Below, piece after piece: positions 1,799 through 58,479 of a stretch of DNA of 64,000 nucleotides. Source of the stretch: Chloranthus sessilifolius (lineage: Eukaryota > Streptophyta > Magnoliopsida > Chloranthales > Chloranthaceae); the NCBI GenBank assembly GCA_021018995.1, contig CM037585.1, forward strand, positions 120,736,331-120,800,330. Direction: 5' to 3'. How positions within the stretch are numbered: position 1 is the stretch's first letter; each line of letters opens with the position of its first letter. The notes under the pieces were generated by a model. It worked only from the letters and a program-made list of their open reading frames with translations. It made no database searches and was not told the DNA's origin. The position numbers were made by a program, and so were the translations under genes.

Positions 1799-2083
1799 CA
1801 ATCGATTGATTTTAGAAAATCAATTGATTGAGGTTGAGACAACTGTTCTGACGCCAAAAATCAGAATTCAAAATCAATCAATTGAATTTCATATATCAAT
1901 CGATTGAGTTGGCAGACAACTATTTCCCTCTCAAATTCAAATTTAAATTCGAATTGATTGATTTTCTAAAATCCATTGATTTATTTCCTAAAATCAATTG
2001 ATTTATTTCAAATTCAAATGATTCCACCAAAAATTCAGATTTTGAATTCAATCGATTGAATCTTAGGATTCAATCGATTAATT
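1799..2083. repeat. Palindrome cluster, core CAATCGATTG
   Basis: About nine copies of YAATYGATTR are present, among them perfect CAATCGATTG at 1799, 1898 and 2049, with irregular spacing and AT-rich spacers. The cluster ends about 35 bp before the TATA box at 2117. Confidence 0.8.
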
Positions 2084-2116
2084 GACCTATATATGGCATA
2101 TTTTCAATCCAAGCCC

Positions 2117-2124
2117 TATATAAA
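2117..2124 (+). promoter_or_regulatory. TATA box of the Athila-like LTR
   Basis: TATATAAA, followed by a leader starting with acagagtagtg. It lies directly downstream of the CAATCGATTG cluster. Confidence 0.6.
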
Positions 2125-2390
2125 CAGAGTAGTGTTTAGGGTTTGGACATGCCTCTTTTTGGGCCATTTTGGCCAATTTTTAGTATTTTTTCTTTAGGAT
2201 TTTTCTCCTTAGTTTTTCAGTTTTTATTTTAGCTTTAGATAACTTAGTTTGTAATTAGGAACCAAAGCTTTGTAAGGTTCCGGATCTTTTCCTAAAAGAT
2301 CCAAACATTTGATAAATCAAAGAATATTTTTATAATAGTTTTGGATATGTGCCTTGCATGTGGATCGGAGATGAATAGCTAAAACCATTC

Positions 2391-4769
2391 TATAACATCC
2401 CCGAATTTTGGGCATAGAACAGTATCCTCGGGATGCGTGCCCGACTTGTCATAGGTTTGACCAAGTAAAAGTCAACTCGATGATTGTGACTTCAACTTAG
2501 GTTGATGTTATAAGTAAGTGTGTGTGTGTGTGTGTAGTTTAAAACTATATGAGAGGTAGCATACACCTATCTTGGGTGTATATGCTTTACACCAAGCAAT
2601 AGAGACAGTTAAGAGGGCTTAATAACTAAAGAGAGTTTATTTCTCTTTGTTTTGGTTGGTGTGGAGTTAAGAAGAGAGAGAGAGAAAGGAAGGAGTAATT
2701 GTTAGGGAGTTAATGTGGATTCCAAATTGAAGACAAGTTTGAGCATTGAACACCGAATTCGAAGCGTTGAAACTCGTTGAAGTCGATGCTAGAAGCCCTT
2801 ACCTATAAACCGATCCAATTGTTCAATCAAAATATTGATTGAGGTGAGTCCTATTTAATTTACTATAAACATGTTGTTGTGCATTAAATTTTGGATTAGG
2901 TGATGAGTTAAAGAAGCGAGAAAGAAGGAAAATAGAAATGAATGAAAGCTAAAAGAAATGGCCGCAAAGGGGTGAAATTCTAACCAAATCGATTGATCGA
3001 TTTGGAGAATCGATCAATCGATTTTGGCCTGGAGGTTGGTTGGGCAAAGATGCCCGAAACCGATTGATCGATTTTAAAATCGATCAATCAATTTTTGAAG
3101 TTCAATTAATCGATTGAAAACCGATTAATTGTCTGGGCACTCCTAGTGACTGAAAAATGGAAGCTTGGGAAAACCAATTGATCGATTTGAAAAATCGATA
3201 AATCGATTTTGGAAACTCAATTAATCGATCTGGATCGATTAATCGATTTTGGGATTTCGATTGATCGATATTGGAGATCGATCAATCGATTTGGACAGTT
3301 TTTATTATCTTTTGTTTTAGACTTTGAGGTTCTTGGAGGGTCTTGAACCTTCTTTTATGCATCCTTCTTGATGCTATGCTTATGCTATGGTGTACCATAG
3401 GTGGTACGTGTGAATGCAAGCATGGGAAACCGCATAGGACCTTGATGCTTGGAAATTCAGACACGTTAGGTAGGGAATACCTTGAACATATATTTTAATA
3501 GCAAGAGTATATATATAGTGATATAGAAATGAGTAATTGTGCATCTAAAATGTGAATACTAAGTGTGTGTGTGTGTGTGTGTGAACACAAGGTAAAGTAA
3601 AATGAGCATGTGACGTCCCCAGGGGATGTGAATGTGATAAAGGCATCTGTGTGATGCATTGAGTTGAACATCCCAGGGATGTATGTGAAAGGATAAAACA
3701 AAGTGAATGAGATTGATAAGGCCTAATCTACTATAATTAGCACAATCACACGGTTAACAACTATATATAGTGCACTATGATGTTTAAGGTTTAGAGAATA
3801 CCCCACCGACGTGACGGGATACCCACGACTGACTCGACAGGATATCCTTAACCGATATGGTGGCCAATCCGTACACCAGTTGGACATCCCAGGGATGTAT
3901 TTTTGTATAAGACTTGAATCCCGTCGCCTATGAGAAAGGGACCTAGGTAGTATTGAATGAATGAAAAAGGATATAAAAATGGTCTGATTAGACGATGATG
4001 GAGGGTATTCTATCGGGCACCCGACTCTATAGTAAGTTGGAGAATATTTAAGTTATGATTTAAGTCTTTAGGCCGAATCATTGTGGTTTGTGAACAAGTT
4101 GAGAATAAATGAAGCATGTAAAGAAACAGTAACCTATAGTGCATCTTTTCAGTCATTTAAACTATTTTTCCAGTAAATTCATTTATACGTCATGCTGTTA
4201 AATGTCATGGAATATATGTGGAGAATTAATATATATGTTCATTCAGTTATTTCCCTATTGAACTAGGATGTAGCTCACCCCTTTAGACTATACGTCACAG
4301 GTCCCGTGCTTGCGGCTACCACTGTTTCTGGAGGCGTAGATCCGGAGGACTTGGATTACGAACCCAGAGAGTATTTGGAGCCCCCTCCTGAGGAATTCTT
4401 CTAGGAGACCACCTCGGCATACTTTGTTTCAGTTTTGTGAAAGTACTGTACGGCTTGGTATGTCAAGCCCTTTTTGTGTGAAAATGTAATTATATTGATA
4501 TATTTTTTTGGCGAATCATTTGGAGTGGCTTTGTTTTATCACCGATGGCTCCGGCCGGTTCTTCTACTCATGTAGTGGCATGGGATTAGAATTGCCTTTT
4601 TGATTCTTATTAGAATAATATATCATTAATGCATGGGAGATCTTGTTCAATTCATTTCTTATGCTTTATTGTGCTTAGTTATACCAATGTTCTGTGCAGG
4701 TTTATGGGGCACGGCCTCAAGGGTCGTGCTGATGGCATAGGTTTTGGGGTGTCGAAATCTGGGCTGTCA
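2391..4769 (+). mobile_element. Solo LTR, chromovirus (Del/Tekay) type
   Basis: It starts TATAACATCCCCGAATTTT (a decayed TGTAACATCCC) and ends AAATCTGGGCTGTCA, the imperfect terminal inverted repeat shared by all chromovirus LTRs in this window. Inside, in order: a GT splice-donor consensus (GAG/GTGAGT at 2844), a palindrome cluster (2986-3293), TG microsatellites at about 2517-2534 and 3563-3583, a GATATCC-rich repeat region (3790-3900), and the AACTAGGATGTAGCTCACCC motif at 4261. No internal domain flanks it, and the host LTR resumes on the right. The target duplication is unclear (CATTC on the left, CATCC overlapping the right end). Confidence 0.75.
2986..3293. repeat. Palindrome cluster, core ATCGATCAATCGAT
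   Basis: Pairs such as CGATTGATCGATTT and AATCGATCAATCG are arranged head to head, about a dozen half units in all. The cluster begins about 140 bp downstream of the GT donor at 2844. Confidence 0.8.
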
Positions 4770-6223: not shown

Positions 6224-6660
6224 CCTCGCGCAGCTTCCCAAAGCTTCAGAGGATTCAAAAAAATATGCTTCGCGCAGTCCTCGCGAATTCCCAAGACTTC
6301 ACAACAACTTCTCACGAAGTTGAGTGACAGACTAGCTTCAGAATCCTGCCTCGCGTAGCTATCGCGCAGTTCAGAAAAGCCTCAAAGCCTTGCGAGGATC
6401 CTCGCGAAGATCCATTGGAGTGATGCTCGTGCAATTCCCACACTATTCACAAGTAGCAATCCAACTGCGCGAAGCCCAATCCAGCGAGAGCTTAACTATC
6501 TACCTCGCGACTGCTCAAAGCATTAAGAAGCTGCAACCTCGCGACGTCTGAAGTTTTAATGCTATCTCCTCGTCGTGACGTCTGAAGTTTTAATGCTAAC
6601 TCATCGTCGCGAAGTCAGTGGTACCACGCGACGAGTTTGGGAAACGATGGCTACCTAGCG
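6224..6660. repeat. Cluster of TCGCGA-type palindromes
   Basis: About a dozen copies of CCTCGCGAAG-like words (for example near 6226, 6279, 6351, 6400, 6536 and 6608), each centred on TCGCGA or a one-base variant, with spacers rich in CTTCAGAA. The cluster lies about 190 bp upstream of the TATA box. Confidence 0.7.
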
Positions 6661-9640: not shown

Positions 9641-11194
9641 TCTATGCAAAACGTATGTATAGGATGGAATCAACGACCCAAGTCGTGCTTAGGGCACGGA
9701 TCACTGCATTTAAGGTGTCCTCCCGAACATCCCGCTCTGTCATCCAGCGGCCATGAAGACTCCTATGCCATTTTCTGGAAGCATTAGTAGCTCCCAGAGC
9801 GTCACTCAAAGCTCCTTCCAGACGAAGGTCCTCACACTCAGCTACCTCAGCTCTCAGGGTTCTGCCGCCTTTGCCCTAACTTTTATTTCTCTAAATGATC
9901 ATGTAGAACTCGCATCTCGTCCACCAGCAGGTCATTACAAGATCAAAGCATCGACTCCTTCTTCGGCCAAGGTCCTCCTACGTCACTACACTCGGGCTGA
10001 ACCAAGTGACAAGCAGAGGGCCTCTCAGATAGTAGCCAAGCCTCGTACTCTGGGGAGGACAAATCTGAATTCCCCTACTTTAGATCACACATATGCATCG
10101 ATTGACGCGTTTCCCAGAGAGTAGCTATCCTATCCAACTCCCCAAGGGACCTTGAGATAAAATCAAGTCGCATAAGGGTGGTGTTGCTACACAGGGCACC
10201 TGCTGAGAGCAACCAAACTGGCGCAACACTCGGAATGGGAAATAGTAAGTACTACCGGTCAGACCAAGGAGAGTGATGCTCTCATAATCCCTAGAGCAAA
10301 CCACTGGAAAAATCCTATCTAACCAGGGAAGCCTCCACACCAGCTTAGCTTCAGCCAGCCAAAGCTTCAGCCCTTGTATATCCCCCCGTGGAAGCACGTG
10401 GCATCTACCAAAAAAGCAGCGGATCACCTCACCTCGAACAACATAAAAGTGGGGCACGGGTCTCAAGATAGCAAGATGCTCTCCAAGTCAAATTTGGAGC
10501 AAGACGGGACATCCCCGGAGGCCCTCCACCTTACCTAGAGCGTAGGCATCAAGGTAGCGATAAAGCTCCGCCAGCACCATATGCATCACAGAGCGGCCTC
10601 CCTCTAATTCCACCAAGACATCGCAGAGTGCTAGCAAGAAACTCTCTCCCCCAGTGTAGAAAAGAACCTCAGAGATAAGGCAAAGGGCAAAGGCCTTCAC
10701 CTTATGAAGATTTTTGATCGGCAATTTTCGCAGGCTTTCCTCCCCAAAAAGTTCTCTCAGGAATTTCACCGAACACCTGGCGGGCCCACCAATAAGACTT
10801 TTCTCATAATCATTTTTCTTCAAGCCTAAGGTGATCTGGATGGCCTTAATGTAACCTGGTTTCGGCAATACTCTGGCAAGGTCTCTATGTAGCTTCAGAC
10901 CCGATAGATTAGAGAGCTCCTCAAGAGTAGGAGTTAACTCACGGTTCCCAAAAAGGAAGACATGGGTGTTAACCTCCCAAGATGAAGCCGCTGCATAAAT
11001 GAAATCTCAAAGCAGAGGAACTTCAAGGAAAGATGAGATACGGGCCAATCCAAGCCGATCCAAACCTGTAGCTCGCTCTCATTCAAGCTCTCAAGCCACT
11101 TCTTTAAAAAATTGGGCCCCACGCCCAAAGAGGGAAGTATAGTGGTCCTGGACCCCCCACAAGAGGCGGGGTCGGAAAGCGGGTCCATTTTCAT
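9640..11194 (-). pseudogene. DUF7745-like gene carried antisense in the Tat element
   Basis: The frame can be followed from an ATG at 11194 through 10868-10125 to a charged helical tail near 9870-9650 (AEVAECEDLRLEGALSDALG). Motifs in order: FLKKWLESLNESELQVW, WEVNTHVFLFGNRELTPTLEEL, ITLGLKKNDYEKSL, GLRGCPVLLQI, ITLLGLTGSTYYFPFRVLRQFG. This order matches the plant transposon-associated domain that I know as DUF7745 (name from memory). Two defects are clear: a frameshift near 11000, and TGA at 10488-10490 where the family has Trp (QI-stop-L for QLWL). Past that stop the same frame stays open to 10125. It lies downstream of palindrome triad 1 and behind the PMD gene on the same strand. Function unknown. 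Confidence 0.6.
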
Positions 11195-11360
11195 ACAAAG
11201 ATGTTTCCGAGATACAATTCAATATAGGACGATGGACCCACCCTTGGCCAAGCAAAAGAAAAAAAAAAAGGCAGTAAAAAAATACCAAGTTTAAAACAAA
11301 AGAGGGAGAAATAAGTGCATTCTCGGGCTTAAAAGGCCCCACATTTTCCCATAAGGCAAT

Positions 11361-11477
11361 TGGCGTGTATAATATACACGCCAGGCCTGTTTTGGCTAGA
11401 TTTGGCTTGGCGTGTATAATATACATGCCAGGCTATTCCTTGCCCAATTTGGCCTGGCGCATATATTATACACGCCA
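11361..11477. repeat. Palindrome triad 1, upstream of the DUF7745-like gene
   Basis: Three 23-bp palindromes (TGGCGTGTATA/TATACACGCCA with one central base) start at 11361, 11408 and 11455, exactly 47 bp apart. Read on the minus strand, the triad stands about 170 bp before the ATG at 11194, with a TTTTAAG word between. Confidence 0.9.
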
Positions 11478-11489
11478 AGACCACTGCTG

Positions 11490-11980
11490 CCACCCAAAGA
11501 GAAAAAGAGAGAGTAGGGGAGGTCCTTTTTGCTTCTCCCTAGCTAGCCCACCTGCATTTCCTACAGTTTAAGTTTTAAAGCATCCCAGACCACATGCTAG
11601 GATATAGGGAATTAACATCTAAACTTTTGTCTTTCAGGGAAACAGTCCACACATAGGTTAAAGCCTTGGCCAGAAATAACCAAGGCATTGCTTGAAAAGA
11701 AAAGGTCGAGCCCATCCTGCAAATGATCCAGTATACTACAGCAAGCAAGATGGGGATAGAACATGCAAACAAAAAGACGGCACTAACAGTCATCTTGAAA
11801 AAGTGAACCATCCGAAACATAGTGTCATATCATCCATTACATATGTCCAAAACCAAAAAAAAAAATGTATGTCCCCAGAGCCTAAAATGTCTAACTAAAT
11901 TAGGGCAGGCCTAATCCTTATCGGCACCCTTGGATTTCTTGCGATAGCACAAGGAGCTGTGGTTGTCTGAACCTCCCCCA
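11490..11980. other. Unassigned sequence between the two antisense genes
   Basis: I see no domain, repeat or RNA gene. It probably holds the 3' untranslated end of the PMD gene and spacer. Confidence 0.4.
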
Positions 11981-11984
11981 CCCG

Positions 11985-14807
11985 AGACCACGCCTGCGAT
12001 AGCCTCTCGAGTAATGATTGTGACTCTTTCTCACAAGCACGCTGCAAACATCACACCAAGAGGCCTGTTTGAGTAGAAGTAAGAGAGGTAAACCAAGAAG
12101 TCAGAGCCGATCAACAAAGCACTTTCAATCTCCACATCTCGAAGACCGGTGATATTGTGATAGTACTCGATGGGCTTGATTCATGGCCTACTCGTAGTTC
12201 TGCATGAAAAGAGATACCAGCTACAGGGGCCATAAGCGTAAAAACTGGCATTTCTCATAAACGAAAATGTACAGGAAAGAAAACTCACCCCTGAGACCAA
12301 TTCAAGTGGGGGGACCCAGACTGCTTTAGCAGATAGACAGGCCCACTCAGCGACATCAGCACATAAACTCGAAAGAAAGGCATCATCAAGGAGTCTCAAG
12401 GTCCCCTGAACCTCAGTAGTCGAGCTACCAGAAGCACTCGTGCCAGAGGGGTCAGAAGGACCAGCACCCATAGCTTCAGCAAGACCTGCCTCCGCCTCAT
12501 CACCGTCTTCAGAATCATCTCCCCCACTAAACTGTGAAAAGAAGCAAGGTTTCAGTCAGTAGAGACAAAATTACATTAGAACCATTGAAAACTTACCTCA
12601 AGAGAAAGGAGAACTACCTGAGATTGCAGACTATCAAAGGCTAAAAAGTTGGTGTCGGGTACGAGATGCGGGACGAGGGACCGATAGGGCAAGGGCTCAT
12701 ACCACATCAGGTATCCTCCAGGTACGAGAAGATCATCGATAGGGATCCCATGATGGAGGAATCTGGCGGAGAGCTCCTCAATAGTGCCCTCAGGAGACAT
12801 AACATCCATGGGAGGAGCCTGCGGCACGGTGAATTGCTCTCGGTACTGATGTGCCACTCTCTCCCCCAGGTAATATGCCCTGGCCCAGGCTTCGTAAAAT
12901 AAAATGACATGGCGGTCAGCAAAAAAGTGAGACGGACCCACCGCAACTCGATCCCAGAAGGGAGAACCAATGTATAGGTCAAAGATGACCTGCAATGAAA
13001 AAAAGAATCCTATCAGTCAATAGCCGCCATCAAACCCAGAGAAAGGGAGAGAAGAGGAAAGTATCCATACCTGCTCTAGGATCAGCAAGTCAAATTGGGA
13101 CCTCAGGCCCAACTCTAAATGCTTCATTTCGACATCCCTGCGGCAACTCTTGTGCCAGTTACTAATGAGCGGATATGTGTAAATATCGGAGAAGAGGAGA
13201 GGGCGACCAAGTTGGAAGTGCAGGTACCCCCAAATTTGAAGAGAACAACAAACATGAAAGATGTGTCAGAGGCAGGATAAATGACTAGCAAAAAAAAAAA
13301 GAAACAAGGGAAGTGAGTCAGGGGTTACCTCAACACAGGCCAAAAATCGACAACTGAACCGAGGTCCCCAACTGAGGCTCGAGCCAAGCCAGACATCAGC
13401 ACGGCATATCCGTTCCCACCCTAGTCATAGTGGTGTACATTGTCCCAATTTCCCATGATACTAAGCAAGGACAATGAAACCCGGCCTCCGCTGGTACTGG
13501 CAAAAAGAGTTTTGCCCAGGAAGAAGGAGAGCGAGATGCGAGCCAACATTAAGGCACGCCCAGGCTCAATAGGGATATCCGCATCCGGCTGGCCCAGATC
13601 CACCAATTCATTCATATTATACAAATCGGTCAGCCAGGATAACTTAACCTCAGTGTCATGCATATTCTGGGAAAAGGGGAAATCCCTAAGCAATTCAGCC
13701 ACCTCATCCCGACTTGGTATGCGAAGGCTAGTCACCGGTGTGCCTCCTATCCTAATCCCCATAATCATCGACCAATTAATCGGGGTGATGGTCATCTTGG
13801 CTATCGGCATGTGAAAAGTCATGGTCTCAGGCCGAAAGCGCTCAAGTAGGGCCTTCAGATAGGCCGAGTCACCCCTCATGGCAGGGCACGAAAGGAAATC
13901 CCTGAAACCAATCTGAGCAAGGAAAAACTTCACAACCGAAGGAAGGTAGAGGTAAAGGCGCTGGAGGTCGAACCAATCCCCATAGAATGTAATCGATGGC
14001 AAGGCCTGTATCAAGATAAATAATTATCAGTTCCTGAAGATAAAGCAAGCTCACATAAAGAAAAGACAAGCCGACAAAATAAACTTGTTTCTTACCTTGC
14101 CAACAATCCCAAAGTTTGAAATATGGGCATACTACTGATTAAGTAGACCAGTACGGGCCGCCTCACCTTGCATCTCCTACCAAAGACGGGAAGAGCGCTG
14201 CACTGCAAAAAATTGCTCCCCCCGGGGACCATAGACCACCTCGGGCCCCTCCTCTTGCCCTTACTCCTCCTCGCTCGACGTTCTAAGGGAGACACAAGCA
14301 ACAATATCGAGACATGTCAGTAGCAGGAAACCAATAGCTACGAGCCAAAAGAAGGTAAGTATGCCCCCTTTCATTTTCCATCAATCATATTTATCGTCAT
14401 GTTTAAATGAATGCATCATAAAAAAAGAGAGGGGTTTTCAAGAAAAGAAGAAAAAGTTTCAAAAAATATATGTATATATACATACATAAACAAAAAGAGA
14501 GAAAAATGAGAGAAAAAAAATGAAAAAAGTTTCAAAAATGTATATCATAATATGTATATCCATACATAAACAAAAAATAGTTTCAAGAAAAGAAGAAGAT
14601 TTCTTTTTGTATCTACATACATTAAAGGAAAAAGATAGGTCATCATTCAAAATCACCACAAATCCACATAAAATGAAATCAAACGGGTCATAAATAATCA
14701 CACTTGCAAAAAATCATTCATTCATCATATAAAAATGCAAGAATCCTAACCACATTACAAATAATTCAAGAAGAATCAAAAGAAATAAGGTTAAAACAAT
14801 GAATACC
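11985..14807 (-). pseudogene. Plant mobile domain (PMD) gene with introns, antisense in the Tat element
   Basis: The PMD core is in the long exon (14005-13329): ALLERFRPETMTFHMP, KMTITPINWSMIMGIRIGG, then VDLGQPD. Further exons carry LQIWGYLHFQLGRPLLF, WDRVAVGPSHFFADRHV and a Ser/Gly-rich tail. GT-AG introns with good consensus are visible at 14283-14806 (in the 5' UTR), 14006-14095, 12990-13070, 12532-12596 and 12200-12288. A possible further one at 13285-13328 is only 44 bp and doubtful. Breaks: TAG after HHYD where a Trp is expected (13421), stops in exon 2 (RLW-stop-EMQGEA and LNQ-stop-YAH), and a frameshift in the last exon near 12140. Cellular PMD proteins (MAIN, MAIL1) act in transposon silencing and genome stability in Arabidopsis; PMD copies within transposons are known. 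Upstream lies palindrome triad 2. Confidence 0.75.
14283..14806 (-). other. 5' UTR intron of the PMD gene
   Basis: Donor GAAG/GTATTC at 14806 and acceptor CCCTTAG/AACGTC at 14283. The interior is AT-rich, with several TATATACATACATAAAC-like repeats between 14460 and 14640, and holds no other gene. Confidence 0.55.
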
Positions 14808-15012: not shown

Positions 15013-15129
15013 TGGCGTGTATAATATACACGCCAGTCCTCTTTTGGTTAGATTTGGCTTGGCGTGCATAATATACACGCCGGGATATTTCTGGCCCAAT
15101 TTGTCTTGGAGCATATAGTATACACGCCA
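15013..15129. repeat. Palindrome triad 2, upstream of the PMD gene
   Basis: Three 23-bp palindromes start at 15013, 15060 and 15107, again exactly 47 bp apart. The second and third have substitutions in one arm. Spacer text (cctcttttggttagatttggc, then cccaattt) matches triad 1, so the two are copies of one module. On the minus strand a TTTTAAA word (14990) and the PMD 5' UTR follow. Confidence 0.9.
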
Positions 15130-44683: not shown

Positions 44684-46397
44684 TGTAATGACCCAGAAAA
44701 TTTGAACCAGAAACTAACCGCATCGATGTACGTGCCTGGCACGGAAATCGAGACAGAAAATTTAAAAACTTTGAAAATAATATTAATAGAAATAATATTA
44801 GCCTATAAGTAGGTTAGTTCACGTATGAAAACTCGTTTCGATCCGAGTCAAGTACGATGTCGAGACGGTACACTACGCCGCATCGACATGTTGGTGTTTC
44901 ACACCGAAGTAAAAATTAGAGAAGCAACTGAAATATCTAAGATATTTCAGTTGGTAGCTTATAAGAGAAGGAAGAGGGTTGGAATGGTTACCCTTCATCT
45001 TCTCCTTCTTCTCTTCCCTTGGAGATCTGCAACTAGGTTATAGGTTTGAGTAGATTCTTTGAGAAAACTAGGTTAGGAATACCCTAGGTTATATATTTGT
45101 TTGACATAGAGTGTGAAGGGGTCAAATACGACGGTCCACATTGAGTCTGGGAAGGTCTTGGCGATCTTTGTGTCTTTGAAGCGAGCTTAACAAATCCTAT
45201 TCGAGTTGTAGCTGTAATAAACTCCGAGAGCCGAATCCAAAACCCTTCGAAATCGTGTTTGCCGAAACCCCGAAAGGGCCCACATCGAGGTGAGCTCTCT
45301 TGTTTAAAATGGGCAGTTGGATGCCCTAAATATAGGTTCTGTATGAATATTTAAGATTATAATGAATTTTTGGAAGAAAAATAAGTTAGAAAAATTTGTT
45401 TGGTGAACTCCATTAATGACTGAAATTTCGTCATTATTGATCGATCAACAAGGTGTTGATCGATCACTAAGTGTGGAATTGATCGATCAACAAGGTGTTG
45501 ATCGATCACTGAGTGTGGAATTGATCGATCAACAGTGGTGTTGATCGATCAATTTATATATATAGTAAAGGAACATTACTGGCAGAGAGTTGGTGAATTT
45601 TGGGTTAATATTGGTGATCGATCAATGGTGGTATTGATCGATCAATTGACTGGGTATTGATCGATCAACAGTGGTGGTGATCGATCAATACAGAGCCCAT
45701 TGATCGATCAACCAACATGGTGATCGATCAATTGTGTACAATATATACAAACAGTTTGTGCTTTGGTGATCGATCAACAAGGGTGTTGATCAATCAATAA
45801 AGAGTTCATTGATCGATCAACAAGGTATTGATCGATCAATAAACCCTGCTGCATGAAGTTAGAAAATTTATAGGTAAGAACCACTTTGGACATTGTGCGA
45901 TTCACAATCACTCTAACACCTAGAGTAACATGTTTATGGTCTAGGATCAGACTAAGATGCCTTGAAAAAGCTTTGGATTTGCTTAGAAGGAACTTGATCC
46001 GAGGTAGGGGAATTCAATCGAAATTGCATTTATTTTTGATCTCATGGTTTATATCTGTCATACATATCTCAGCATAGTTTAATTCTGTTTTAAAAGCATG
46101 TTTAGCATATGTATGAGCATTCTATTAGGTACTTGATCCGACATTTGATATCCGTATCCGAAATCCGAATTCTGTTAAGTATGATAAGTATGCATGTGAT
46201 TTGAGGTTTGATATTCAGTAAAAATCCCACCGACTCGGCGGTATATCCGTTTCAGGCACACTTGTGCATTTGCTTTGTAATCCTCGACACAATTGCACTC
46301 CATGTGTGGGGCATTGTTGCAATTCCTGAAATTGTTCATGTGAACGACGATGGTTGGGATTATCCATCGGACCAAATCTGGCTACCACGTGCTATAC
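44684..46397 (+). mobile_element. Solo LTR B, left part (plus strand, TSD TTTCA)
   Basis: TGTAATGACCCAGAAAATTTG starts after TTTCA (44679-44683). The LTR breaks at 46397 and resumes at 58485, ending CGGGCTGTCACA at 59362, followed by TTTCA (59363-59367). Own length is 2592 bp. It carries a TTATAAGAG promoter word (44959), a GT donor (TCGAG/GTGAGC at 45290), a TGATCGATCA cluster and the GGCGGTATATCCG remnant (46238). Confidence 0.93.
45437..45842. repeat. TGATCGATCA cluster in solo LTR B
   Basis: Fifteen perfect TGATCGATCA and one variant, often as pairs TTGATCGATCAACA-AGGTG. It begins about 150 bp after the GT donor at 45290. Confidence 0.92.
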
Positions 46398-47148
46398 TGT
46401 AACGACCCCGAAAATTAGAACACGTGCCTGACTGCTTTGATCCGCGTGCCCGGCGCGGAAACCGAGGTTAATTTAAAAACTTTAAGGTTATATTAATTTA
46501 AATAATGTGGCACCGTGATGAGATGAGATCACGTGTGAAATTTCGTTTAGATCTGAGACGCGTAGAGGGTAGATGGAACACGTTGCGCAGAAGCAACTGT
46601 GTTCATACTTCACACCGGAATAGACACCAAGGGCAAAATAGAAATTTTGCTTGAGAGAAGTAGCTTATAGAGGAAGGATGGGGAGACAAGAGAAGAGAGA
46701 CTTCATTCCTTCTTCTCCTTCATCACCTTGCCCATAGATTGGAGATTGATGCTAAGAAGTGTGAAAGAAATCATTGAGAGAGAGAAGAAGAAGGGTTAGC
46801 AAGAGAGAAGAGGAGAGATTCTAAGCTAGAGGAGCTAGACCTAAGGGTTTGAGTTACCTAGGGTTTGAGATTGTTGTGAGAGACCACGATCTGTTGAACC
46901 GAATGCCGAGGAATTTCTCGCCGAATCCGCATCGAAGAGGAGCTCCAAGATCTAGGTTTTGGAAACCCTCTTTTGGTCATTCTGCGGAACCCCAAGAAAC
47001 CCACGAACAAGGTGAGTTGTGTGTTAAATAAGGTTAAATGAGTAGTTTAAAGGGTAGGTTTATGATGTATTAATGGTGATTGCACAACCATTAATGGAGA
47101 GAAACAAAATGGAAGGAAAGGTGAACTCCATTAATGACTTTCTTGTCA

Positions 47149-47573
47149 TTGGTGATCGATCACCAAGGTGGTGATCGATCTATAAGAGTTGTGATCGATC
47201 ACCAAGGGCTGGTGATCGATCAATCTATAAGTTTATAGGGGCGAGAGTTGAGAAGTTGAGGCCCGAGTGGTGATCGATCACCAAGGTGATCGATCTACAA
47301 TGAATCTGGTGATCGATCACCAAGGTGGTGATCGATCTACAAAAAAGTGATCGATCACCAAGGTGGTGATCGATCAATTTGTATAAAATTTATGTGGACA
47401 GAGAGGAGTTTTGAAGCTTCTGGTGATCGATCACCTGGTGATCGATCTACAAAGCTGTGATCGATCTACAAAGTGGTGATCGATCTACAAAGGCTGGTGA
47501 TCGATCTACAAAGGCTGGTGATCGATCTACAAAGGCTGGTGATCGATCTACAGTGGGTGGTGATCGATCACTC
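47149..47573. repeat. TGATCGATCA/TGATCGATCT cluster in the 5' LTR
   Basis: About 19 units, of two kinds: GTGATCGATCACCAAG (full palindrome) and GTGATCGATCTACAAAG (one arm changed). The second kind forms a regular 20-22-bp tandem run at the right end. Confidence 0.92.
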
Positions 47574-48644
47574 ACCCCTGCTTTTGCCTGTCTTGAATTC
47601 ATGAAGTAGACACCCCGGATATTGTGCCGGGTAGTTCTCTGACATTCCTAACACTTAATGTGCTGTGCATATGGTATAGGATAAACCCTGACACGTCGAA
47701 AAAGCTTTGGATTTGCTTAGGAGATAAAGCGATCCGAGGTAGGGAAAATTCAACTTAAAGTGTATCTAAATTTAATTGCATGATATCTTAACATCGTATT
47801 CTATCTACGATTTTCAAGCCTGCATATGCATTAAACTCTGATTCCCGTATTCTGATATCTGTTTCTGTTCTTTGCATATGCTCTGATAATCTGCTCTGAT
47901 AATCTGCTATGATAATCTGCTCTGATAATCTGATTCATGAGGTAATAAGTATGTATTTGATTTGAGGTTTAATATTCAGACGATCCCCACCGACTGGCGG
48001 TATATCCGCTTTCTTGCACAATGCGATTGCTTGAAAATCCTCGGCAAAATATGCACTCCATGTGTGGGGCATTATTGCATTCCTGAAAATTGTTCATTGA
48101 ACGACGATTGGTTGGGGTTTCCTATCGGCACAAATCTGGCTACCACGTGATATATATACACGGGAGTTACTTAAGTTAGAGATATGTATGATTTAAGTCA
48201 TTTAAATCTAATAAGCCGACATCTTGCTAATTAGTTCTTTACTTTTGCCGATTATGCATTACGATTTCTGCATGTTTGAGCATCAATCTATATCTGCATT
48301 GATTTAGTTTCACTTGTCGATCTAAGATATGTTGCAATCATGTTTAATAATTTAGATGTAAATTAATTGAAATTCTTCTCGAGCTAGGATGTAGCTCACC
48401 GCTTTCAAATCTTTTTTTGGTTACAGCAGGTCGATCGAGAGCGATCCGGATTATCACCGGATCCCGAGGAGGCGAGAAGAGGAGCCGACGTCAAAGGACG
48501 GAGAGTTCTATCCTTAGCCTGGGTATTGATGCCCGACATTTGTACTTTTGATCTTTTGGATTTACTGTGTGCCTGGTGGCCACCTTTGTATAAACATATG
48601 TAGTTCTACATTTATTTATTTTATGTTAGTCCACATTCCATTTC

Positions 48645-48709
48645 GGAACCACTATCGGGAACCATTGTTTGGGTGATGTACGTCCATCACCGATGGTTCT
48701 TCTGGTTCC
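48645..48709 (+). other. Conserved LTR hairpin, 5' LTR copy
   Basis: GGAACCA, GGGAACCAT and GGTGATG face CATCACC, ATGGTTC and TGGTTCC around a TACGT-type loop. Copies are at 58209-58274, 59082-59147 and (minus strand) 42464-42529. Confidence 0.7.
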
Positions 48710-48907
48710 TTTTGGGAATGTGTATGTTCTTCCTTACATTTAAATATTGTTGACGTGTATTTAGTGTAGAAATTGGTTGACTCACTACTGCTCGGATGTG
48801 TCCACCTAGCTTCCCGCTATATGCGCGGATCGTGATCGATCCGGATCATCCGTAGTATGATCCTAGCAGTGCACGGGTTTCGGAAACGGAAATCCGGCCG
48901 CTATGAT

Positions 48908-49009: not shown

Positions 49010-50256
49010 ATGGGCCCTAAGTTCGAGAGGAGGGCATAGTGGAGGTAGAGCGGAGACGAGAGATTCCCCGAGGGATGTGCGGAGGTCACGTCGGGGCTTA
49101 GAGTTTCTCTCGCAGCCAAATGTGGTTCCGGTGGGACCAACAGGAGGAAGAAGAAGAAATGAGGAGAGGATGGGGCAGGTGTTGGAAGCATTAGCTACCA
49201 ACGTCGCTCAACAAACAAACAAGCGTTGGCTCAGCAGTGACTAGACCACCCCATCGACCCTAGTGGGTTTGGAGTTTAGGAGAATGAGACCTCCTAACTT
49301 CGGGTCAAACGGATCCCATTGAAGCGGAAGGATGGATTGAAGAGATGGAAAAGCTCTTCGAGGTACTACAATGTAGTGATGAGGAGAAAGTGCGTTGGGC
49401 CACTTTCAAACTTGATGGTGACGCCGGACCATGGTGGAAGTCGGTGTCACAAAATCGACAAAGAGAATTCCCTCACACTCCTTGGACATGGGAGGAGTTC
49501 ACGGAGGTGTTTTACCACAAATACTTCCCGAAAATTGTGAGGCATCAGTGGGAAGTGAAGTTTATAGAATTGAGACAAGGCGCCATGTCGGTGAGAGACT
49601 ATGGAGCAGAATTTGACAGGTTGGCTAGGTTTGCTCCTCAGCATGTAGCCACAGAGTTGATGAGGGCCAGAAAGTTTCAACTTGGCCTTAGACAGATTCT
49701 ACAAGAGGACGTCGCCATGTGGGAAATGGAGACGTATGAGGAGGGCATGGCCAAGGCTCTCATAGCTGAAGAGGAGAACCAAAAACAATTTTCTTGGAGG
49801 GACAAGCAGACGAGAGAGAGACCATTTCAAGGGCAATCTGAGGACACGGAACAAAACAAGAGGGCTAGGTTTGGTAGACCTCGGAGATACCCTAGAGACT
49901 CTCGACCGGCGATATCTTCGGGTCCTAGTTCCTACCAGAGGGCGGCAGCACCTACTTCTTCTAGATCATTCAGACCGGTGGATCTTACGGTAGCGGGGCC
50001 TCGGTGACCGAGGACCTTCAAGGATCTCATCCTTTACTCCGCCGTGGTTTGTGCAAAGTGTGGAAACAACACAAGGCGGAGGATTGTAGGAGAGATCTGG
50101 GGCATGTTTGTGTGGCAAGATGGGCCACTTGGTTAGGAATTGCCACGAGGAGAGTAAGGAGCGGACGGATCGGTATCAACACGAGATCATCTCGACCAAT
50201 AGTCCAGTCGAGCTTATCCATGCGATCGATGCTCGACATCGAACGATGTCATCAAG
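49010..50256 (+). pseudogene. Chromovirus gag with double zinc knuckle
   Basis: The likely start is ATG at 49010 (MGPK, the usual Del/Tekay start), six bases after an AG acceptor; that frame stops after nine codons and the coding continues in others. Frame 49345-50007 (220 residues) carries the gag core: WATFKLDGDAGPWW, WEEFTEVFYHKYFPKIVR, FIELRQGAMSVRDYGAEFDR and LARFAPQHV. Zinc-knuckle text follows in pieces (KQHKAEDCRRD near 50058 and CGKMGHLVRNCHEE from 50110). The wording is that of the Del/Tekay chromoviruses. At least three frame breaks. Confidence 0.88.
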
Positions 50257-50979: not shown

Positions 50980-52200
50980 CCGAACCAGAACGATATCTAA
51001 GGCTCCGTGTCGGATGGCTCCAACGCAATTGCAAGAGTTGAAGGAACAAGCGCAAGAAGCGCTTGACAAGGGATTTATTCGCCAAGTGTGTCTCCTTGGG
51101 GAGCACCGGTGTTGTTTGTCCGAAGAAAGAAGGCGGCTCAATGCGCTTATGCATTGATTATCGGCGATTGAATAAGGACGATTAAGAATCGTTACCGCTT
51201 CCTAGGATCGATGATCTATTTGATCAATTGCAAGGAGCGAGGTTCTTTACGAAGATTGACTTGAGATCAGGTTACCATCAATTACGGGTCAAGGCTGAAG
51301 ATGTGGAGAAGACGGCGTTCAGAACTAGATATGGGCACTATGAGTTCTTAGTTATGCCATTTGGATTGACGACGCACCGCATCATTTATGGACCGATGAA
51401 TCGTATATTTAAACCACACTTGGACAAGTCGGTGGTTGTTTTCGTGACGACATTCTTGTCTATTCCAAGACAAAGGAGGAGCACGAAGAACATCTACATG
51501 TGGTTTTGGACCCTTAGAGAACACAAATTGTACATAAGCTCGGAAAGTGTGAGTTTTGGTTGAACCAAGTGAGTTTCTTAGGCCATATCGTCTCCGAAAA
51601 GGTATAACGGTAGATCCAACAAAGATCGAGGCGATTGTGAATTGGGAACGACCTAAAAGGATGTGAAGTTCGTAGTTTTCTTGGTTTGGCGTACTACTCA
51701 CGGTTTGTAGAAGGATTCTCTAAGCTATCGAGTCCACTCACTCGACTCACAAAGAAAACGCTAAGTTTGATTGGGACTAACAATGCGAGAAGAGTTTCCG
51801 AGAATTAAAGACGCTCTAACTACAAATTTCTAGCTATACCTTCTCGCGAGGAGGCTTTGCTATCTATAGTGACGCATCATATAGTGGGTTAGGTTGTGCC
51901 CTCAATCAGCATAAAAAGGTTATCGCATATGGCTCTACACAACTGAAGGAACATGAGAAGAACTACCCGACTCATGACTTGGAGTTAGCGGTGATCTTTG
52001 CTCGAAAATTTGGAGGCACTACTTATACGGTGAGACATTTGACATCTACGACCACAAAAGCCTAAAGTACTTGTTTACACAAAGGACTTGAACATGCGAC
52101 GTAGTGGTGGATGGAGTTCTTAAAAGACTACGATTGTTCCATCCAAGATTATCACCTGGAAAAGCCAATGTGGTGGCGGATGCTTTGAGCGAAGTCTTAT
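50980..52200 (+). pseudogene. Chromovirus reverse transcriptase and RNase H
   Basis: Text in order: [20 protein letters not shown] (51019), LCIDYRRLN (51147), FTKIDLRSGYHQLRV (51245), AFRTRYGHYEFLVMPFGLT (51315), the catalytic DDILVYSKTKEEHEEH (about 51447-51494) and an RNase H part from about 51860 with [15 protein letters not shown] and [14 protein letters not shown] remnants. A one-base change puts the two catalytic Asp codons out of frame with the residues before them. Confidence 0.88.
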
Positions 52201-54124: not shown

Positions 54125-54132
54125 TTATAAAG
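54125..54132 (+). promoter_or_regulatory. Possible TATA box of the extra gene
   Basis: TTATAAAG immediately after the TGATCGATC cluster, about 210 bp before ATG 54343. The leader between them is GC-richer and contains a possible donor (CACCG/GTAAAT at 54281). Confidence 0.5.
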
Positions 54133-54342
54133 AGGGGAACCCGAGGGGTCATTGCAACATTCTAACCGCAAGAGACCAAAGGGTTTTCGATTTTCGGCCT
54201 TCCTCAACCATTTTCGTTCGTTCTCCGGCTATTTCGTTCGTTCTCCGGCGCGATTTGAGTGTGCGTCGCCACATTCACCGGTAAATCTTCCGTTTCCTTA
54301 ACTTTCGATTCCTTTTTCTTGCATTTCGCCCAAATCTAGACC

Positions 54343-55769
54343 ATGGGACCACGCACGAAGAATCCTTCGCGTAAGGTACCCACATCCCGGCTCATCTCCG
54401 CCTTCTATTCCAAATCACCCGCCGTCCGTGTCACCCATGGCACCGGCTTCGACCTCTACCCGCCGTTCCCGCATCCGCATCGCTCACTATTGAGCGTGAA
54501 ATCCCCAACGCCTGGTGGGCTTCCAAAACCTTCCTACCGGAATACGTTTTTGTGTCCTCACTATATGAGGACCGACCCGAAATGGCTTGGGCCAAGGGTT
54601 ACATACAAAAGCTAGGGCTTAAACCCTTACTCGCCCTTCCATGACCATTACTGCCCACGTATTGTGCGGCTTTTCTTTCAAAACCTCAAATGGGGTGATA
54701 GTCGCCATCGACTCGTCACAACAATCGATGGCCTTGAATATAAATTCAACCATTTCCACGTCGCGGCGGCACTTCAATGCCGTCTCCGTACGGTTGAACC
54801 GATGGCCTCGAGCCTCGTTACATCAAGGAGGTACCCTATGCGGATGTGGTCACCAAGATGACCCAAGGCCAACACGGTAGGGGCCAAGCCATTTCTAGGG
54901 CCCAACTACCTGATCGGTTGTGGATGCTTGATACCTACATCAAGTGTGCCTCAACCCTTTCTGCACAAGTCCTCACGGAGGGTAGTGCACAGGCACTATT
55001 CTCCGCCTATGAGAACCGTTGGTTCTCTATGGCGAATCTGGTCATTGATGGCATCATAAATGCCAATGACACGATGTCTGAAGAAGCGTCTGGAGCGAGA
55101 AAGCAGATCCCCTATGCACGCCTCGTCACCAAGCTTCGTGAGCGTATCTGCCTACGCGAGGCCTACGTCTTGGCTCCTCCACGAGCCCGTTTGGAAAACA
55201 ACACTAGGGTCTTTCACGAAAAGGACAAAAACTACAACTTGTTGGTTAAGCGTCTTCACGAGGAGGAAGAGGCGGCGGTGAGCCGTCCCCTAGCGTGGAG
55301 GTTGATCCCTCTTGTAGCAGAGTTCGATCCTGATGTGCCCGCGACCACAGAGGGCGAGACACCACAGGACCTACCACCCCAGCCAGAGCCATCTGTCCGA
55401 CCAGCCCCTGTTCCACCCGCCGTCGATTCGTCACGCCCCCTCCCCGTCTTCCTCCGGCAGCGTCACTGCGATGCTTGCGAGTTGGTGAAAGCAATCGCGC
55501 ATCCACGTGAGGCGGATGGCGTTGAGGCGTTCGAGAGCAGATGCATAAATCGTGCGGACTATCACGCGGGTATGCATGAGCTAGTCATGCGCACCTCTAT
55601 GCCACGGCGTCACGCGATGCTCGCCGCGCCTTTTGCACAGGTGGATCCACGCGACTATCATTCACCGCGTAGCGTCCCTGAAGCGCGATCACGCGCCCAT
55701 CCGATGCTCCGCAGTATTACAGAACTACTATTGCTTATTAGCCATTTATATGTACACGTATCTCTCTAG
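54343..55769 (+). pseudogene. Extra gene of the chromovirus (putative plant transposon protein domain)
   Basis: It is not a retroviral function. From ATG 54343 the protein runs through about three frames to a stop at 55769, some 470 residues in all. Readable parts: a basic Ser/Thr/Pro N-terminus; WASKTFLPEYVFVSSLYEDR (about 54510); RPFHDHYCPRIVRLFFQNLKW (54640), IDGLEYKFNHFHVAAAL; then RLWMLDTYIKCASTL, FSAYENRWFSMANLVIDGI and KQIPYARLVTKLRERICLRE (54915-55160), a Pro-rich linker and an HCDACELVKAIAHP tail. Order and wording resemble the putative plant transposon protein domain (Pfam PF20167, from memory). Extra genes are known in Tat-lineage gypsy elements; here it is in a chromovirus, in sense, behind its own palindrome cluster. 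Two frameshifts are visible; the open frame from 54846 starts with GTG and simply continues upstream text. Confidence 0.65.
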
Positions 55770-55772: not shown

Positions 55773-55959
55773 TATTTCGTTGCATATTGCATATATTTTG
55801 TTCATACTTTGATTATTCTGCCTGCAATATATAAACACGGTAAATCTTTTAGTTATCATGCATGACACTTAGATCAATTCCCTGTATTAGTTTAGCATGA
55901 GTCTTAAAACTACAAAATCCCTACGTCGCCTCTTAGACATTTTCGAGGCGAAAATTCCT
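55773..55959 (+). other. 3' UTR between the extra gene and the polypurine tract
   Basis: Non-coding; ends with the chromovirus-typical ACATTTTCGAGGCGAAAATT box. Confidence 0.6.
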
Positions 55960-55971
55960 AAGGGGGGGATA
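55960..55971 (+). other. Polypurine tract of the chromovirus
   Basis: AAGGGGGGGATA directly before the 3' LTR; it primes plus-strand DNA synthesis in this class of element. Confidence 0.85.
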
Positions 55972-55972
55972 A

Positions 55973-58479
55973 TGTAACGACCCCGAAAATTAGAACACGT
56001 GCCTGACTGCTTTGATCCGCGTGCCCGGCGCGGAAACCGAGGTTAATTTAAAAACTTTAAGGTTATATTAATTTAAATAATGTGGCACCGTGATGAGATG
56101 AGATCACGTGTGAAATTTCGTTTAGTTCTGGGACTCGTAGAGGGGAGATGGAACACGTTCTTGAAGCAAACGTGTTCATACTTCACCTGGAATAGACACC
56201 AAGGGCAAAATAGAAATTTTGCTTGAGAGAAGTAGCTTATAGAGGAAGGATGGGGAGACAAGAGAAGAGAGACTTCATTCCTTCTTCTCCTTCATCACCT
56301 TGCCCTGTGTGCTCCATAGATTGGAGATTGATGCTAAGAAGTGTGAAAGAAATCATTGAGAGAGAGAAGAAGAAGGGTTAGCAAGAGAGAAGAGGAGAGA
56401 TTCTAAGCTAGAGGAGCTAGACCTAAGGGTTTGAGTTACCTAGGGTTTGAGATTGTTGTGAGAGACCCTGATCTGTTGAAACGAGCCGAGGAATTTCTCG
56501 AATCCGCATCGAAGAGGAGCTCGAGATCTAGGTTTTGGAAACCCTCTTTTGGTCATTGCGGAACCCCAAGAAACCCACGAACAAGGTGAGTTGTGTGATA
56601 AATAAGGTTAAATGAGTAGTTTAAAGGGTAGGTTTATGATGTATTAATGGTGATTGCACAACCATTAATGGAGAGAGAGCAAAAATGGAAGGAAAGGTGA
56701 ACTCCATTAATGACAGCTTTGCTGTCATTGGTGATCGATCACCAAGGTGGTGATCGATCTACAGTGGGTTGGTGATCGATCACCAAGGGCTGGTGATCGA
56801 TCAATCGTATAAGTTTATAGAGCATGAGAGTTGAGAAGTTGAGGCCCGAGGTGGTGATCGATCACCAAGGTGGTGATCGATCTACAATGAGTCTGGTGAT
56901 CGATCACCAAGGTGGTGATCGATCTACAAAGGTGTTGGTGATCGATCACCAAGGTGGTGATCGATCAATTTGTATAAAAATTTATGTGGACAGAGAGAGG
57001 AGTTTTTGATGCTTACTGTGGTGATCGATCACCAGGCTGGTGATCGATCTACAAAGGCTGGTGATCGATCTACAAAGGCTGGTGATCGATCTACAAAGGC
57101 TGGTGATCGATCTACAAAGGCTGGTGATCGATCTACATGGTGATCGATCACTCACCCTGCTTTTGAATTCATGAAGTAGACACCGGATATTGTCTTGGGT
57201 AGTTCTCTGACATTCCTAACACTTAATGTCTGCATATGGTATAGGATAAACCACGACACGTCGAAAAAGCTTTGGATTTGCTTAGAAGATAAAGCGATCA
57301 GGTAGGGAAAATTCAACTTAAAGTGTATCTAAATTTAATTGCATGATATCTTAACATCGTATTCTATCTACGATTTTGAAAGCATGCCCGCATATGCATT
57401 AAACTCGATTCCGTATTCGATATCTCGTTCGTTTTTGCATATGCTCCGATAATCACGATAATCTGCTATGATAATCAGCTCGATAATCGATTCATGAGGT
57501 AATAAGTATGTATTTGATTTGAGGTTTAATATTGACGATCCCCACCGACTCGGGTATATCCGTTCTTGCACAATGTGCGATTGCTTGAAAATCCTCGGCA
57601 AAATATGCACTCCATGTGTGGGGCATTATTGCATTCTGAAAATTGTTCATTGAGCGACGATTGGTTGGGGTTTCCTATCGGCACAAATCTGCTACCACGT
57701 GATATATATACAGGAGTTACTTAAGTTAGAGATATGTATGATTTAAGTCATTTAAATCTAATAAACCGACATCTTGCTAATTAGGAGTTCGGTTTACTTT
57801 TGCCGATTATGCATTACGATTTCTGCATGTTTGAGCATCAATCTATATCTCTGTTTTTCGTTTCACTTGTCGATCTAAGATATGTTACGCAATCATGTTT
57901 AATAATTTAGATGTAAATTAGTGAAATTCTTCTCACGAGCCTAGGATGTAGCTCACCACGCTTCTGAAATCTTTTTAGGTTACGAGGCTGCGGTGCAGTC
58001 TTGAGAGCGATCCGGATTATCGGGGATCCGAGGCGAGAGGAGCGAGAGGCAGACGTTCGAGCGGACGAGTTCTATCCTTAGCCTGGGTATTGATGCCCGA
58101 CATTTGTACTTTTGATCTTTTGGATTTACTGTGTGCCTGGTGGCCACCTTTGTATAAACATATGTAGTTCTACATTTATTTATTTTATGTTAGTCCACAT
58201 TCCATTTCGGAACCACTATCGGGAACCATTGTTTGGGTGATGTACGTCCATCACCGATGGTTCTTCCTGGTTCCTTTTTGGGAATGTGTATGTTCTTCCT
58301 TACATTTAAATATTGTTGACGTGTATTTAGTGTAGAAATTGGTTGACTCCGACTACAGCTGCTCGGATGTGTCCACCTAGCTTCCGCTATATGCGCGGAT
58401 ACGTGTGATCGATCCGGGATCATCCAGAGTATGATCCTAACGGTACGGGTTTCTGGAAACGGAAATCCGGGCTGTTACA
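55973..58479 (+). repeat. 3' LTR of the chromovirus
   Basis: TGTAACGACCCCGAAAATT ... CGGGCTGTTACA, with GT donor at 56586, TGATCGATC cluster at 56726-57152, CCTAGGATGTAGCTCACC near 57940 and the conserved hairpin at 58209-58274. Compared with the 5' LTR it repeatedly lacks one or two bases at CTG (57415-57495). Confidence 0.94.
56726..57152. repeat. TGATCGATCA/TGATCGATCT cluster in the 3' LTR
   Basis: About 17 units in the same order as in the 5' LTR, including the terminal tandem run of GGCTGGTGATCGATCTACAAA (21-22 bp). Confidence 0.92.

What the first reader, a model, noticed from the sequence alone, without database searches (positions are those of the whole stretch)
1799..57152. Family-specific palindrome clusters at DNA-only positions in unrelated LTR retrotransposons
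Seen: nine or more separate clusters of short palindromes, each built on one motif specific to its element family (CAATCGATTG 1799-2083; ATCGATCAATCGAT 2986-3293; TCGCGA 6224-6660; TGGCGTGTATA/TATACACGCCA 11361, 15013, 16379; CTCACCGCGGTGAG 19258; GCGCGCAATT 22755; TGATCGATCA 43553, 45437, 47149, 53970, 56726). Their position follows a rule. Either they end shortly before a TATA box (2117, 6848, 16857, 23206, 54125) or they begin about 110-310 bp after a GT donor in the LTR leader (donors 2844, 18951, 44315 minus, 45290, 47012, 56586). Both are places absent from a spliced mRNA, which suggests recognition at DNA level. Inference: binding sites for a self-recognising factor, as VANC proteins recognise short motif arrays in VANDAL elements, or sites for host regulators. 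Motif divergence between families fits escape or specificity evolution. Only the 28018 Athila-like LTR lacks a cluster.
Basis: partly seen in the sequence, partly recalled or inferred. Interest (0 to 1): 0.9.

Follow-up and report, generated by a model that had tools for sequence, protein, structure and literature searches.

The report
Paired palindrome arrays in plant retrotransposons
Several plant jumping genes carry rows of a short palindromic DNA word, different in each family, both in their end repeats and just before an extra gene of unknown function, which suggests that the extra gene may make a protein that switches its own element on or shields it from silencing.

Summary
The palindrome clusters are real and above chance for their own motifs, though two quoted motifs are idealised. 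Chromovirus A (46394-58470): both arrays in 29 of 30 copies. Family B: aORF 37% identical to A's, different unit, array before the aORF in 16 of 19 copies examined. A third type with an antisense PMD gene: units before the gene in 12 of 12 copies, in the LTR in 5 of 6 stretches. Internal and LTR arrays share words mainly within a family. Cores are conserved while spacers diverge, spacing centres on about 21 bp, and the aORF is under purifying selection. Best reading: a self-targeting regulatory circuit, VANC-like or foamy-virus-Tas-like; the binder is inferred, not shown. The architecture has a precedent: Sireviruses (Ty1/copia) have palindromic boxes in the LTR and before the ENV gene (PMC2829016). 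New here are the Ty3 lineages, the leader-intron-like site and the matched motif change.

The parts
46394..48897 (+). 5' LTR of element A (chromovirus, Tekay-like); LTR pair 91% identical
47010..47017 (+). donor-like AG|GTGAGT in the 5' LTR leader of A
   Evidence: sequence; present before the LTR array in 29 of 30 A copies
47152..47571 (+). array of 18 GATCGATC palindromes in the 5' LTR of A
49288..50004 (+). gag of A (Retrotrans_gag PF03732)
51186..51560 (+). reverse transcriptase piece of A (RVT_1)
   Evidence: chromodomain found in copies L006 and L024
53972..54109 (+). internal array of 6 GATCGATC palindromes, just before the TATA box of the aORF
   Evidence: array present in 29 of 30 copies
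54125..54132 (+). TATA box (TTATAAAG) of the aORF
54340..55766 (+). aORF of A, in separate frames in this copy; open in L018 (510 aa); weak near-full-length resemblance to Transposase_32
55969..58470 (+). 3' LTR of A
56731..57151 (+). array of 17 GATCGATC palindromes in the 3' LTR
44683..46396 (+). related LTR A' (62-63% to A), array 45437-45843 with 15 units
42247..44656 (-). related LTR A'', array 43553-44170 with 20 units and random spacers
2395..4768 (+). LTR of family B (no partner LTR in the window)
2986..3293 (+). B-type array AATCGATYRATCGATT after donor 2844
1799..2083 (+). CAATCGATTG-type array before TATA 2117; B-like (8-mer sharing with B LTR z 8-9)
10491..14023 (-). pieces (10491-11006, 13424-14023) of an antisense extra gene with plant mobile domain (PMD PF10536)
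11361..11478 (-). 3 x GGCGTGTATA-N-TATACACGCC, 47 bp apart, upstream of the 10491-11006 PMD piece
15013..15129 (-). 3 x the same unit upstream of the 13424-14023 PMD piece
   Evidence: 2-4 units in 12 of 12 genomic copies, this one included
16379..16498 (+). 3 x the same unit in the LTR upstream of TATA 16857
17891..21520 (+). LTR of family C (ends by eye); array 19261-19410 of CTCRCYGYGGYGAG-like palindromes
22755..23200 (+). 13 GCGCGCAATT-like sites before TATA 23206, in an LTR (start 22463, by eye) nested in a Ty1/copia element
6224..6660 (+). TCGCGA cluster (15 sites with up to 1 mismatch) upstream of TATA 6848

Best explanation
The arrays are double-stranded DNA recognition sites for a family-specific, probably dimeric regulator, and the likeliest regulator is the element's own extra protein (aORF in A and B, antisense PMD protein in the third type). 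It would bind the array next to its own internal promoter and the array in the LTR, thereby coupling its own expression to expression (by activation or anti-silencing) of the whole element. Shown: pairing of arrays, within-family matching, between-family change, conserved cores, spacing centred on about 21 bp in A and C, closeness to TATA in A and B, purifying selection on the aORF. Inferred: that the aORF product is the binder, that it binds as a dimer, and the direction of the effect.
For: A: LTR-side array in 30 of 30 and aORF-side array in 29 of 30 fetched copies, the window's own included. B: array before the aORF in 16 of 19 copies examined (8 of 10, 4 of 4, 4 of 4, not in L056); LTR array in 7 of 7 B LTR loci. 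A and B aORFs are homologous (37% over query residues 58-352, E 4.6e-55) but their units differ. PMD type: 12 of 12 copies before the gene, LTR units in 5 of 6 stretches. 8-mer sharing: A internal in A LTRs 0.44-0.45 (z 38-48), B in B 0.30-0.38 (z 11-14), PMD in PMD 0.31-0.47 (z 21-28). Cores 97.7% vs spacers 87.5% vs flanks 91.1% across 30 copies. In A'' 33 of 37 half-sites have a perfect other half while 5-bp spacers are random (pairwise identity 0.27). Of 705 neighbouring GATCGATC distances 583 are 16-24 bp, 1 is 25-37, 120 are 38-108 and 1 is 4 (copies are related). C motif at 21 bp: 1662 forward vs 17 for the reversed pattern. dN/dS below 1 in 45 of 45 A and 15 of 15 B pairs (pairs not independent).
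Against: No DNA-binding domain was recognised: Transposase_32 only below cut-off in A and nothing in three B pieces, no significant PDB or database homologue, structure model unusable (pLDDT 34). No binding, expression or methylation data. Cross-family 8-mer sharing is not zero: B LTR vs A internal 0.08-0.14 (z 4-7), A' and A'' LTR vs B internal 0.13-0.16 (z 7-8), 22755 cluster vs A internal 0.17 (z 12), so A and B motifs may be one diverged specificity. C and the 6224 and 22755 clusters have no known aORF here. Phase coherence at 10.5 bp over whole arrays is modest (R 0.35-0.90), and the PMD unit spacing of 47 bp is not a whole number of turns. L014 and L094 lack the aORF-side array and L088 keeps one unit.
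Confidence: 0.5

Rival explanations
1. The arrays are enhancer sites for host transcription factors, independently acquired or drifting; the aORF promoter and the LTR share them simply because both need the same host factor.
For: Clusters sit next to TATA boxes or in a leader intron-like place, usual enhancer positions. Clusters without a known aORF exist (C, 6224, 22755). The authors of the Sirevirus paper compared their boxes with plant regulatory sites and recovered mainly stress-related ones (PMC2829016, section 9 read).
Against: Each family has its own motif, some of 12-21 bp, long for a plant factor site (general knowledge); the motif changes between families with homologous aORFs yet stays matched at both positions. 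A host factor would favour one shared motif. The motifs were not compared with plant factor matrices.
Confidence: 0.3
2. The arrays are ordinary tandem repeats made by slippage or unequal exchange without function.
For: Tandem Repeats Finder reports many of them; the last part of the A array is nearly uniform 21-bp repeats. Spacer identity is 0.55 in the A LTR, 0.43 in the A internal and 0.42 in the B LTR array.
Against: Spacers are random in A' and A'' although cores are intact; cores are better conserved than flanks across 30 copies, CpG included (cores picked from the majority sequence); the same array recurs at the same two places.
Confidence: 0.06
3. The palindromes act in RNA or in nucleic-acid handling: genomic RNA dimerisation, small-RNA production, or integration.
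For: Palindromes can dimerise RNA, and the LTR array of A and B lies downstream of a donor, so within the leader of unspliced RNA if the start lies upstream (inference).
Against: Internal arrays of A and B and the PMD LTR array lie upstream of TATA boxes, so outside a transcript that starts there; two-turn spacing is a DNA feature; palindromes without a loop make poor hairpins (general knowledge).
Confidence: 0.07
4. The sites are read by another element-encoded protein or by a factor encoded by a partner family, the aORF being unrelated to them.
For: Family C keeps arrays in 8 of 8 copies fetched; four of its LTR pairs are only 5.5-5.9 kb apart, which suggests non-autonomous elements served in trans (interiors not examined).
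Against: An array stands just before the extra gene in each of the three aORF-bearing types examined.
Confidence: 0.07

Closest known systems
Sirevirus repeated-motif (RM) boxes, Ty1/copia (Bousios et al. 2010 by recall of authors; PMC2829016; search listing, passages and section 9 read)
   Same: Element-specific palindromic boxes in high copy in the LTR and, in the nine elements with an ENV gene and not in the four without, additional boxes before that gene (77 of 79 linker copies upstream of ENV); conserved TATA box after the LTR cluster. One of them, Tnd-1, has ACAATCGATTGT.
   Different: Ty1/copia, mostly a CGG-CCG core, described as Sirevirus-specific; LTR boxes upstream of TATA. Here Ty3 chromoviruses and a PMD-bearing type, other cores, LTR array behind a donor in A and B, motif change between homologous aORFs, spacing near 21 bp, selection measured. 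In the passages read the authors discuss nuclear factors as binders, not the ENV product.
VANC/VANDAL anti-silencing (PMC5735166; passages read)
   Same: Family-specific short motifs in non-coding tandem repeats of an element that encodes a trans-acting protein; motif and protein change together.
   Different: VANDALs are DNA transposons; the VANC21 motif YAGTATTAY is not palindromic; binding and demethylation were measured there, not here.
Foamy virus Tas and internal promoter (PMC8670036, PMC4929722; starts of abstracts in the listing)
   Same: A retroelement with LTR plus internal promoter, both activated by a transactivator; that its gene lies behind the internal promoter is recalled.
   Different: Animal retrovirus; no sequence relation tested; long matched arrays are not mentioned in what I saw.
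Extra ORFs of plant LTR retrotransposons: Grande/Retand TRP28 and sunflower Tekay 5'aORF (PMC7264820, PMC11963269, PMC11728184, PMC12844716; passages read)
   Same: Extra genes, some antisense with their own promoter, some predicted nuclear or DNA binding; family-specific tandem repeats between pol and 3' LTR in Retand; a sunflower Athila aORF partly resembles Transposase_32.
   Different: In the passages read no motif shared between LTR and aORF promoter is reported; the 2026 paper says that an epigenetic role of such ORFs in Tork and Athila remains to be investigated.

Membership tests
Ty3/gypsy chromovirus (Tekay-like), element A | Ty3-type gag, RT and integrase C-terminal chromodomain | tested here: met
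   Retrotrans_gag, RVT_1, SH3_Tf2-1 and Chromo above cut-off in copies L006 and L024
Ty3/gypsy chromovirus (Tekay-like), element A | Tekay clade by RT phylogeny | not tested
   Assignment to Tekay rests on LTR length and ends, recalled
Sirevirus RM system | Ty1/copia Sirevirus backbone | tested here: not met
   A is a chromovirus
Sirevirus RM system | Palindromic boxes in the LTR and before the extra gene | tested here: met
Sirevirus RM system | CGG-CCG core | tested here: not met
   units GATCGATC, AATCGATYRATCGATT, GGCGTGTATANTATACACGCC, CTCGCCGCGGCGAG
VANC/VANDAL anti-silencing | VANDAL DNA-transposon backbone | tested here: not met
   A is an LTR retrotransposon
VANC/VANDAL anti-silencing | encoded protein homologous to VANC | tested here: inconclusive
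   Pfam scan of the aORF shows only sub-threshold matches; no VANC sequence was compared
VANC/VANDAL anti-silencing | Family-specific motif repeats in non-coding regions | tested here: met
VANC/VANDAL anti-silencing | Encoded protein binds the motif and removes DNA methylation | not testable with these tools
   no binding or methylation data
Transposase_32 (PF20167) protein family | score above Pfam cut-off (45 bits) | tested here: not met
   12.5-14.9 bits, E 0.14-0.025, near full profile length in A; none in three B pieces
Plant mobile domain (PF10536) | score above Pfam cut-off (34.9 bits) | tested here: met
   window 10491-11006 38.6 bits, 13424-14023 59.7 bits

The most novel reading that the evidence does not exclude
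Extra genes of plant LTR retrotransposons (chromovirus aORF, PMD genes and, by analogy, Sirevirus ENV-like genes) are in general sequence-specific DNA-binding self-regulators whose target palindromes are carried in matched arrays at their own promoter and in the LTR, and protein and arrays co-evolve, splitting element families into separate regulatory systems that non-autonomous relatives exploit.
Probability: 0.33. Interest if true: 0.88.

Novelty: new variant of a known kind. Interest (0 to 1): 0.7.

Why it matters
The function of extra ORFs in plant LTR retrotransposons is an open question, and these elements make up much of many plant genomes. The matched arrays name a concrete target sequence for each extra protein, so a single binding assay would decide the question. 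If confirmed, self-recognition by a VANC-like logic would have arisen repeatedly, in DNA transposons, Ty1/copia and Ty3 elements.

Tried and rejected
Slippage alone: thought unlikely because A' and A'' spacers are random. Assigning the 22755 cluster to a copia element: rejected, its LTR is nested between copia gag and pol pieces. Reading 1799-2393 as the B aORF promoter followed by its LTR: only weak similarity to L047 (61-66% over stretches over 100 bp, mostly the array), so left open. Structure of the aORF: model with mean pLDDT 34, not used; a second job with a broader alignment was not accepted. Homologue searches of the A and B proteins gave nothing. An autonomous C partner with an aORF was not identified; I looked only through and fetched no C interior. 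In one search four C pairs on one contig and strand are 5.5-5.9 kb apart, others 14-34 kb. The half-site test is uninformative for B, whose unit is composite (7 of 20). In one search (C motif, 26 bp: 389 forward, 394 reverse, control 18 and 20) many listed matches are inner parts of 21-bp-spaced units, so it is an upper bound.
Full report
WHAT WAS CHECKED. The window is a stretch of a 2.17-Gb genome (G000), full of LTR retrotransposons. Exact motif searches, repeat searches and dinucleotide shuffles confirm the clusters named, with corrections: two quoted motifs are idealised (CTCACCGCGGTGAG 0 exact occurrences; GCGCGCAATT 1), and the PMD-region clusters are three units each of a 21-bp palindrome at 47-48 bp spacing. 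Exact palindromes as such are in excess only in the ATCGAT-type arrays and, for TCGCGA, at 6215-6670; the PMD, 19255 and 22750 clusters stand out only when scored with their own motif with mismatches, chosen after the fact. A motif-free count of imperfect inverted repeats is significant for PMD, 22750 and 1780 but not for 19255 (P 0.11) and 6215 (P 0.17). The 28018 LTR shows no excess. The better evidence is recurrence in other genomic copies.

ELEMENT A. LTRs 46394-48897 and 55969-58470 (91% identical) flank gag (49288-50004), an RT piece and, before the 3' LTR, an extra reading frame (aORF, 54340-55766, in separate frames here). Copies L006 and L024 carry a chromodomain above Pfam cut-off, so A is a Ty3/gypsy chromovirus; 'Tekay-like' is recalled from LTR length and ends. 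GATCGATC arrays lie in both LTRs (18 and 17 units) and in a third place, 53972-54109, ending about 16 bp before a TTATAAA box ahead of the aORF.

COPIES OF A. The aORF has at least 124 matches in the genome. In the 30 loci fetched, the window's own included, the LTR-side array is present in 30 and the aORF-side array in 29; L014 lacks it (loci on the minus strand were not re-oriented, so sides swap). By a strict pattern a TATA box follows the last unit in 15 of 29, at 12-17 bp in 14 of them and 37 bp in one; the other 14 have TTAAA there. AGGTGAGT lies 125-166 bp before the LTR array in 29 of 30.

FAMILY B. The LTR 2395-4768 has longer matches at 77-88% identity. The full-length copy in L047 has an aORF; A's protein matches a further B copy, L056, with 37% identity over query residues 58-352, E 4.6e-55. 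B's unit is AATCGATYRATCGATT, and GATCGATC is absent or nearly absent from its arrays. An array stands before the aORF in 16 of 19 copies examined: 8 of 10 (L088 keeps one unit; L094 none), 4 of 4 among the 16 stretches that matched the aORF region (11 had no match and L080 matched only in array words), 4 of 4; in L056 the promoter is cut off by other DNA. In the 14 of 17 loci with a literal CCTATATA, half-units number 3 (L088) to 27 in the 330 bp before it and 0-1 after it (in L095-L098 only about 90-130 bp after it were held); the other three have a variant TATA box there. L095 and L097, with aORFs 66-67% identical to B's, have a drifted unit, TTCGATTAATCGAA. LTR arrays are present in 7 of 7 B LTR loci and follow the donor by 133-159 bp in 6 of 7 (L059 has no donor match).

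PMD TYPE. Pieces of a plant-mobile-domain gene run antisense at 10491-14023. Three units precede each PMD piece and three lie in the LTR upstream of TATA 16857. In 12 of 12 genomic copies (the window's own included) 2-4 units lie before the gene; in all 37 hits, 5 of them weak ones elsewhere, against 3 in shuffled loci. The LTR was found in 5 of 6 stretches fetched, each with 3-6 units before TATAAATA; L049 held no LTR. Whether PMD and the A/B aORF are related was not tested.

FAMILY C AND OTHERS. The 17891-21520 LTR keeps 1-4 palindromes in 8 of 8 copies fetched, out of the 69 matches. Genome-wide the unit followed at 21 bp by the next is found 1662 times forward and 1637 reverse, against 17 and 14 for the reversed pattern; at 26 bp 389 and 394, an upper bound. 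Four pairs of C matches lie 5.5-5.9 kb apart, read as non-autonomous elements; their interiors were not examined, and other pairs are 14-34 kb apart. The four loci fetched by the A motif alone, the first of 467 places, all lie in A' or A'' LTRs. The 6224 and 22755 clusters were examined only in the window.

MATCHING AND CONSERVATION. The share of internal-array 8-mers found in an LTR array is 0.44-0.45 for A in A (0.27-0.32 in the related A' and A''), 0.30-0.38 for B in B and 0.31-0.47 for PMD in PMD. Cross values are 0-0.16, except 0.17 for the 22755 cluster vs A internal; the window's 1795-2090 array scores 0.18-0.22 in B LTRs, which is why it is called B-like. Across the 30 A copies, core columns are 97.7% identical, spacers 87.5%, flanks 91.1%; for the aORF-side array 97.9, 90.5 and 90.7. 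The cores were picked from the majority sequence, which favours them somewhat. A test less open to that: in A'' 33 of 37 half-sites are followed by a perfect second half while the 5-bp spacers are as different as random DNA (0.27); A' 24 of 26 and 0.29; A LTR 24 of 24 but 0.55; A internal 8 of 8 and 0.43. Of 705 neighbouring GATCGATC distances in the loci held, 583 are 16-24 bp (modes 19, 21 and 23) and 1 is 25-37; the copies are related. Phase at 10.5 bp over whole window arrays is modest, R 0.35-0.90. aORF dN/dS is below 1 in 45 of 45 A pairs (ratio of sums 0.32) and 15 of 15 B pairs (0.15); only open frames were used and pairs are not independent.

MECHANISM. The simplest account is a trans-acting, sequence-specific, DNA-level regulator tied to each family. 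That the aORF is this regulator is inferred from its array-bearing promoter and from the joint change of protein and motif. It may activate (as foamy-virus Tas does on LTR and internal promoter, abstracts) or prevent silencing (as VANC does, passages). In A the aORF seems to have a globular part, a proline-rich linker and a C-terminal stretch that looks helical (by eye), which would suit a dimer; no fold could be shown.

NOVELTY. Sireviruses already show palindromic boxes in the LTR before TATA and before the ENV gene, absent from the linker when ENV is absent (PMC2829016). This finding extends that architecture to Ty3 lineages and adds the matching and selection tests. Ten paper searches listed, in titles and starts of abstracts, no report of matched LTR and aORF-promoter arrays in Ty3 elements; the library lacks most subscription journals, and the 2022 VANC co-evolution paper was not held.

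Noticed in passing
L056:1-700 and L068: A different stretch that interrupts a B copy carries many TTCGATAGGTT-like words every few tens of bases, non-palindromic (by eye).
   Followed up: no
window 58519-58809: A 145-bp unit in two identical tandem copies just downstream of element A.
   Followed up: no
window 4838-5247: Two tandem 209-bp copies (86%) similar to stretches at 28983 and 38806 in the Athila-like LTR regions.
   Followed up: no
window 24017-24471: Thirteen copies of a 35-bp AT-rich tandem repeat between a copia gag piece (21639-22391) and copia pol pieces (24909, 26119), within or near the LTR that starts at 22463.
   Followed up: partly
window 54340-55766: The window copy of the aORF is broken into separate frames; intact copies exist in the genome.
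   Followed up: partly
L057:559-997: A GATCGATC array of 17 units lies about 1.9 kb upstream of a B LTR, perhaps a nested A-type LTR.
   Followed up: no
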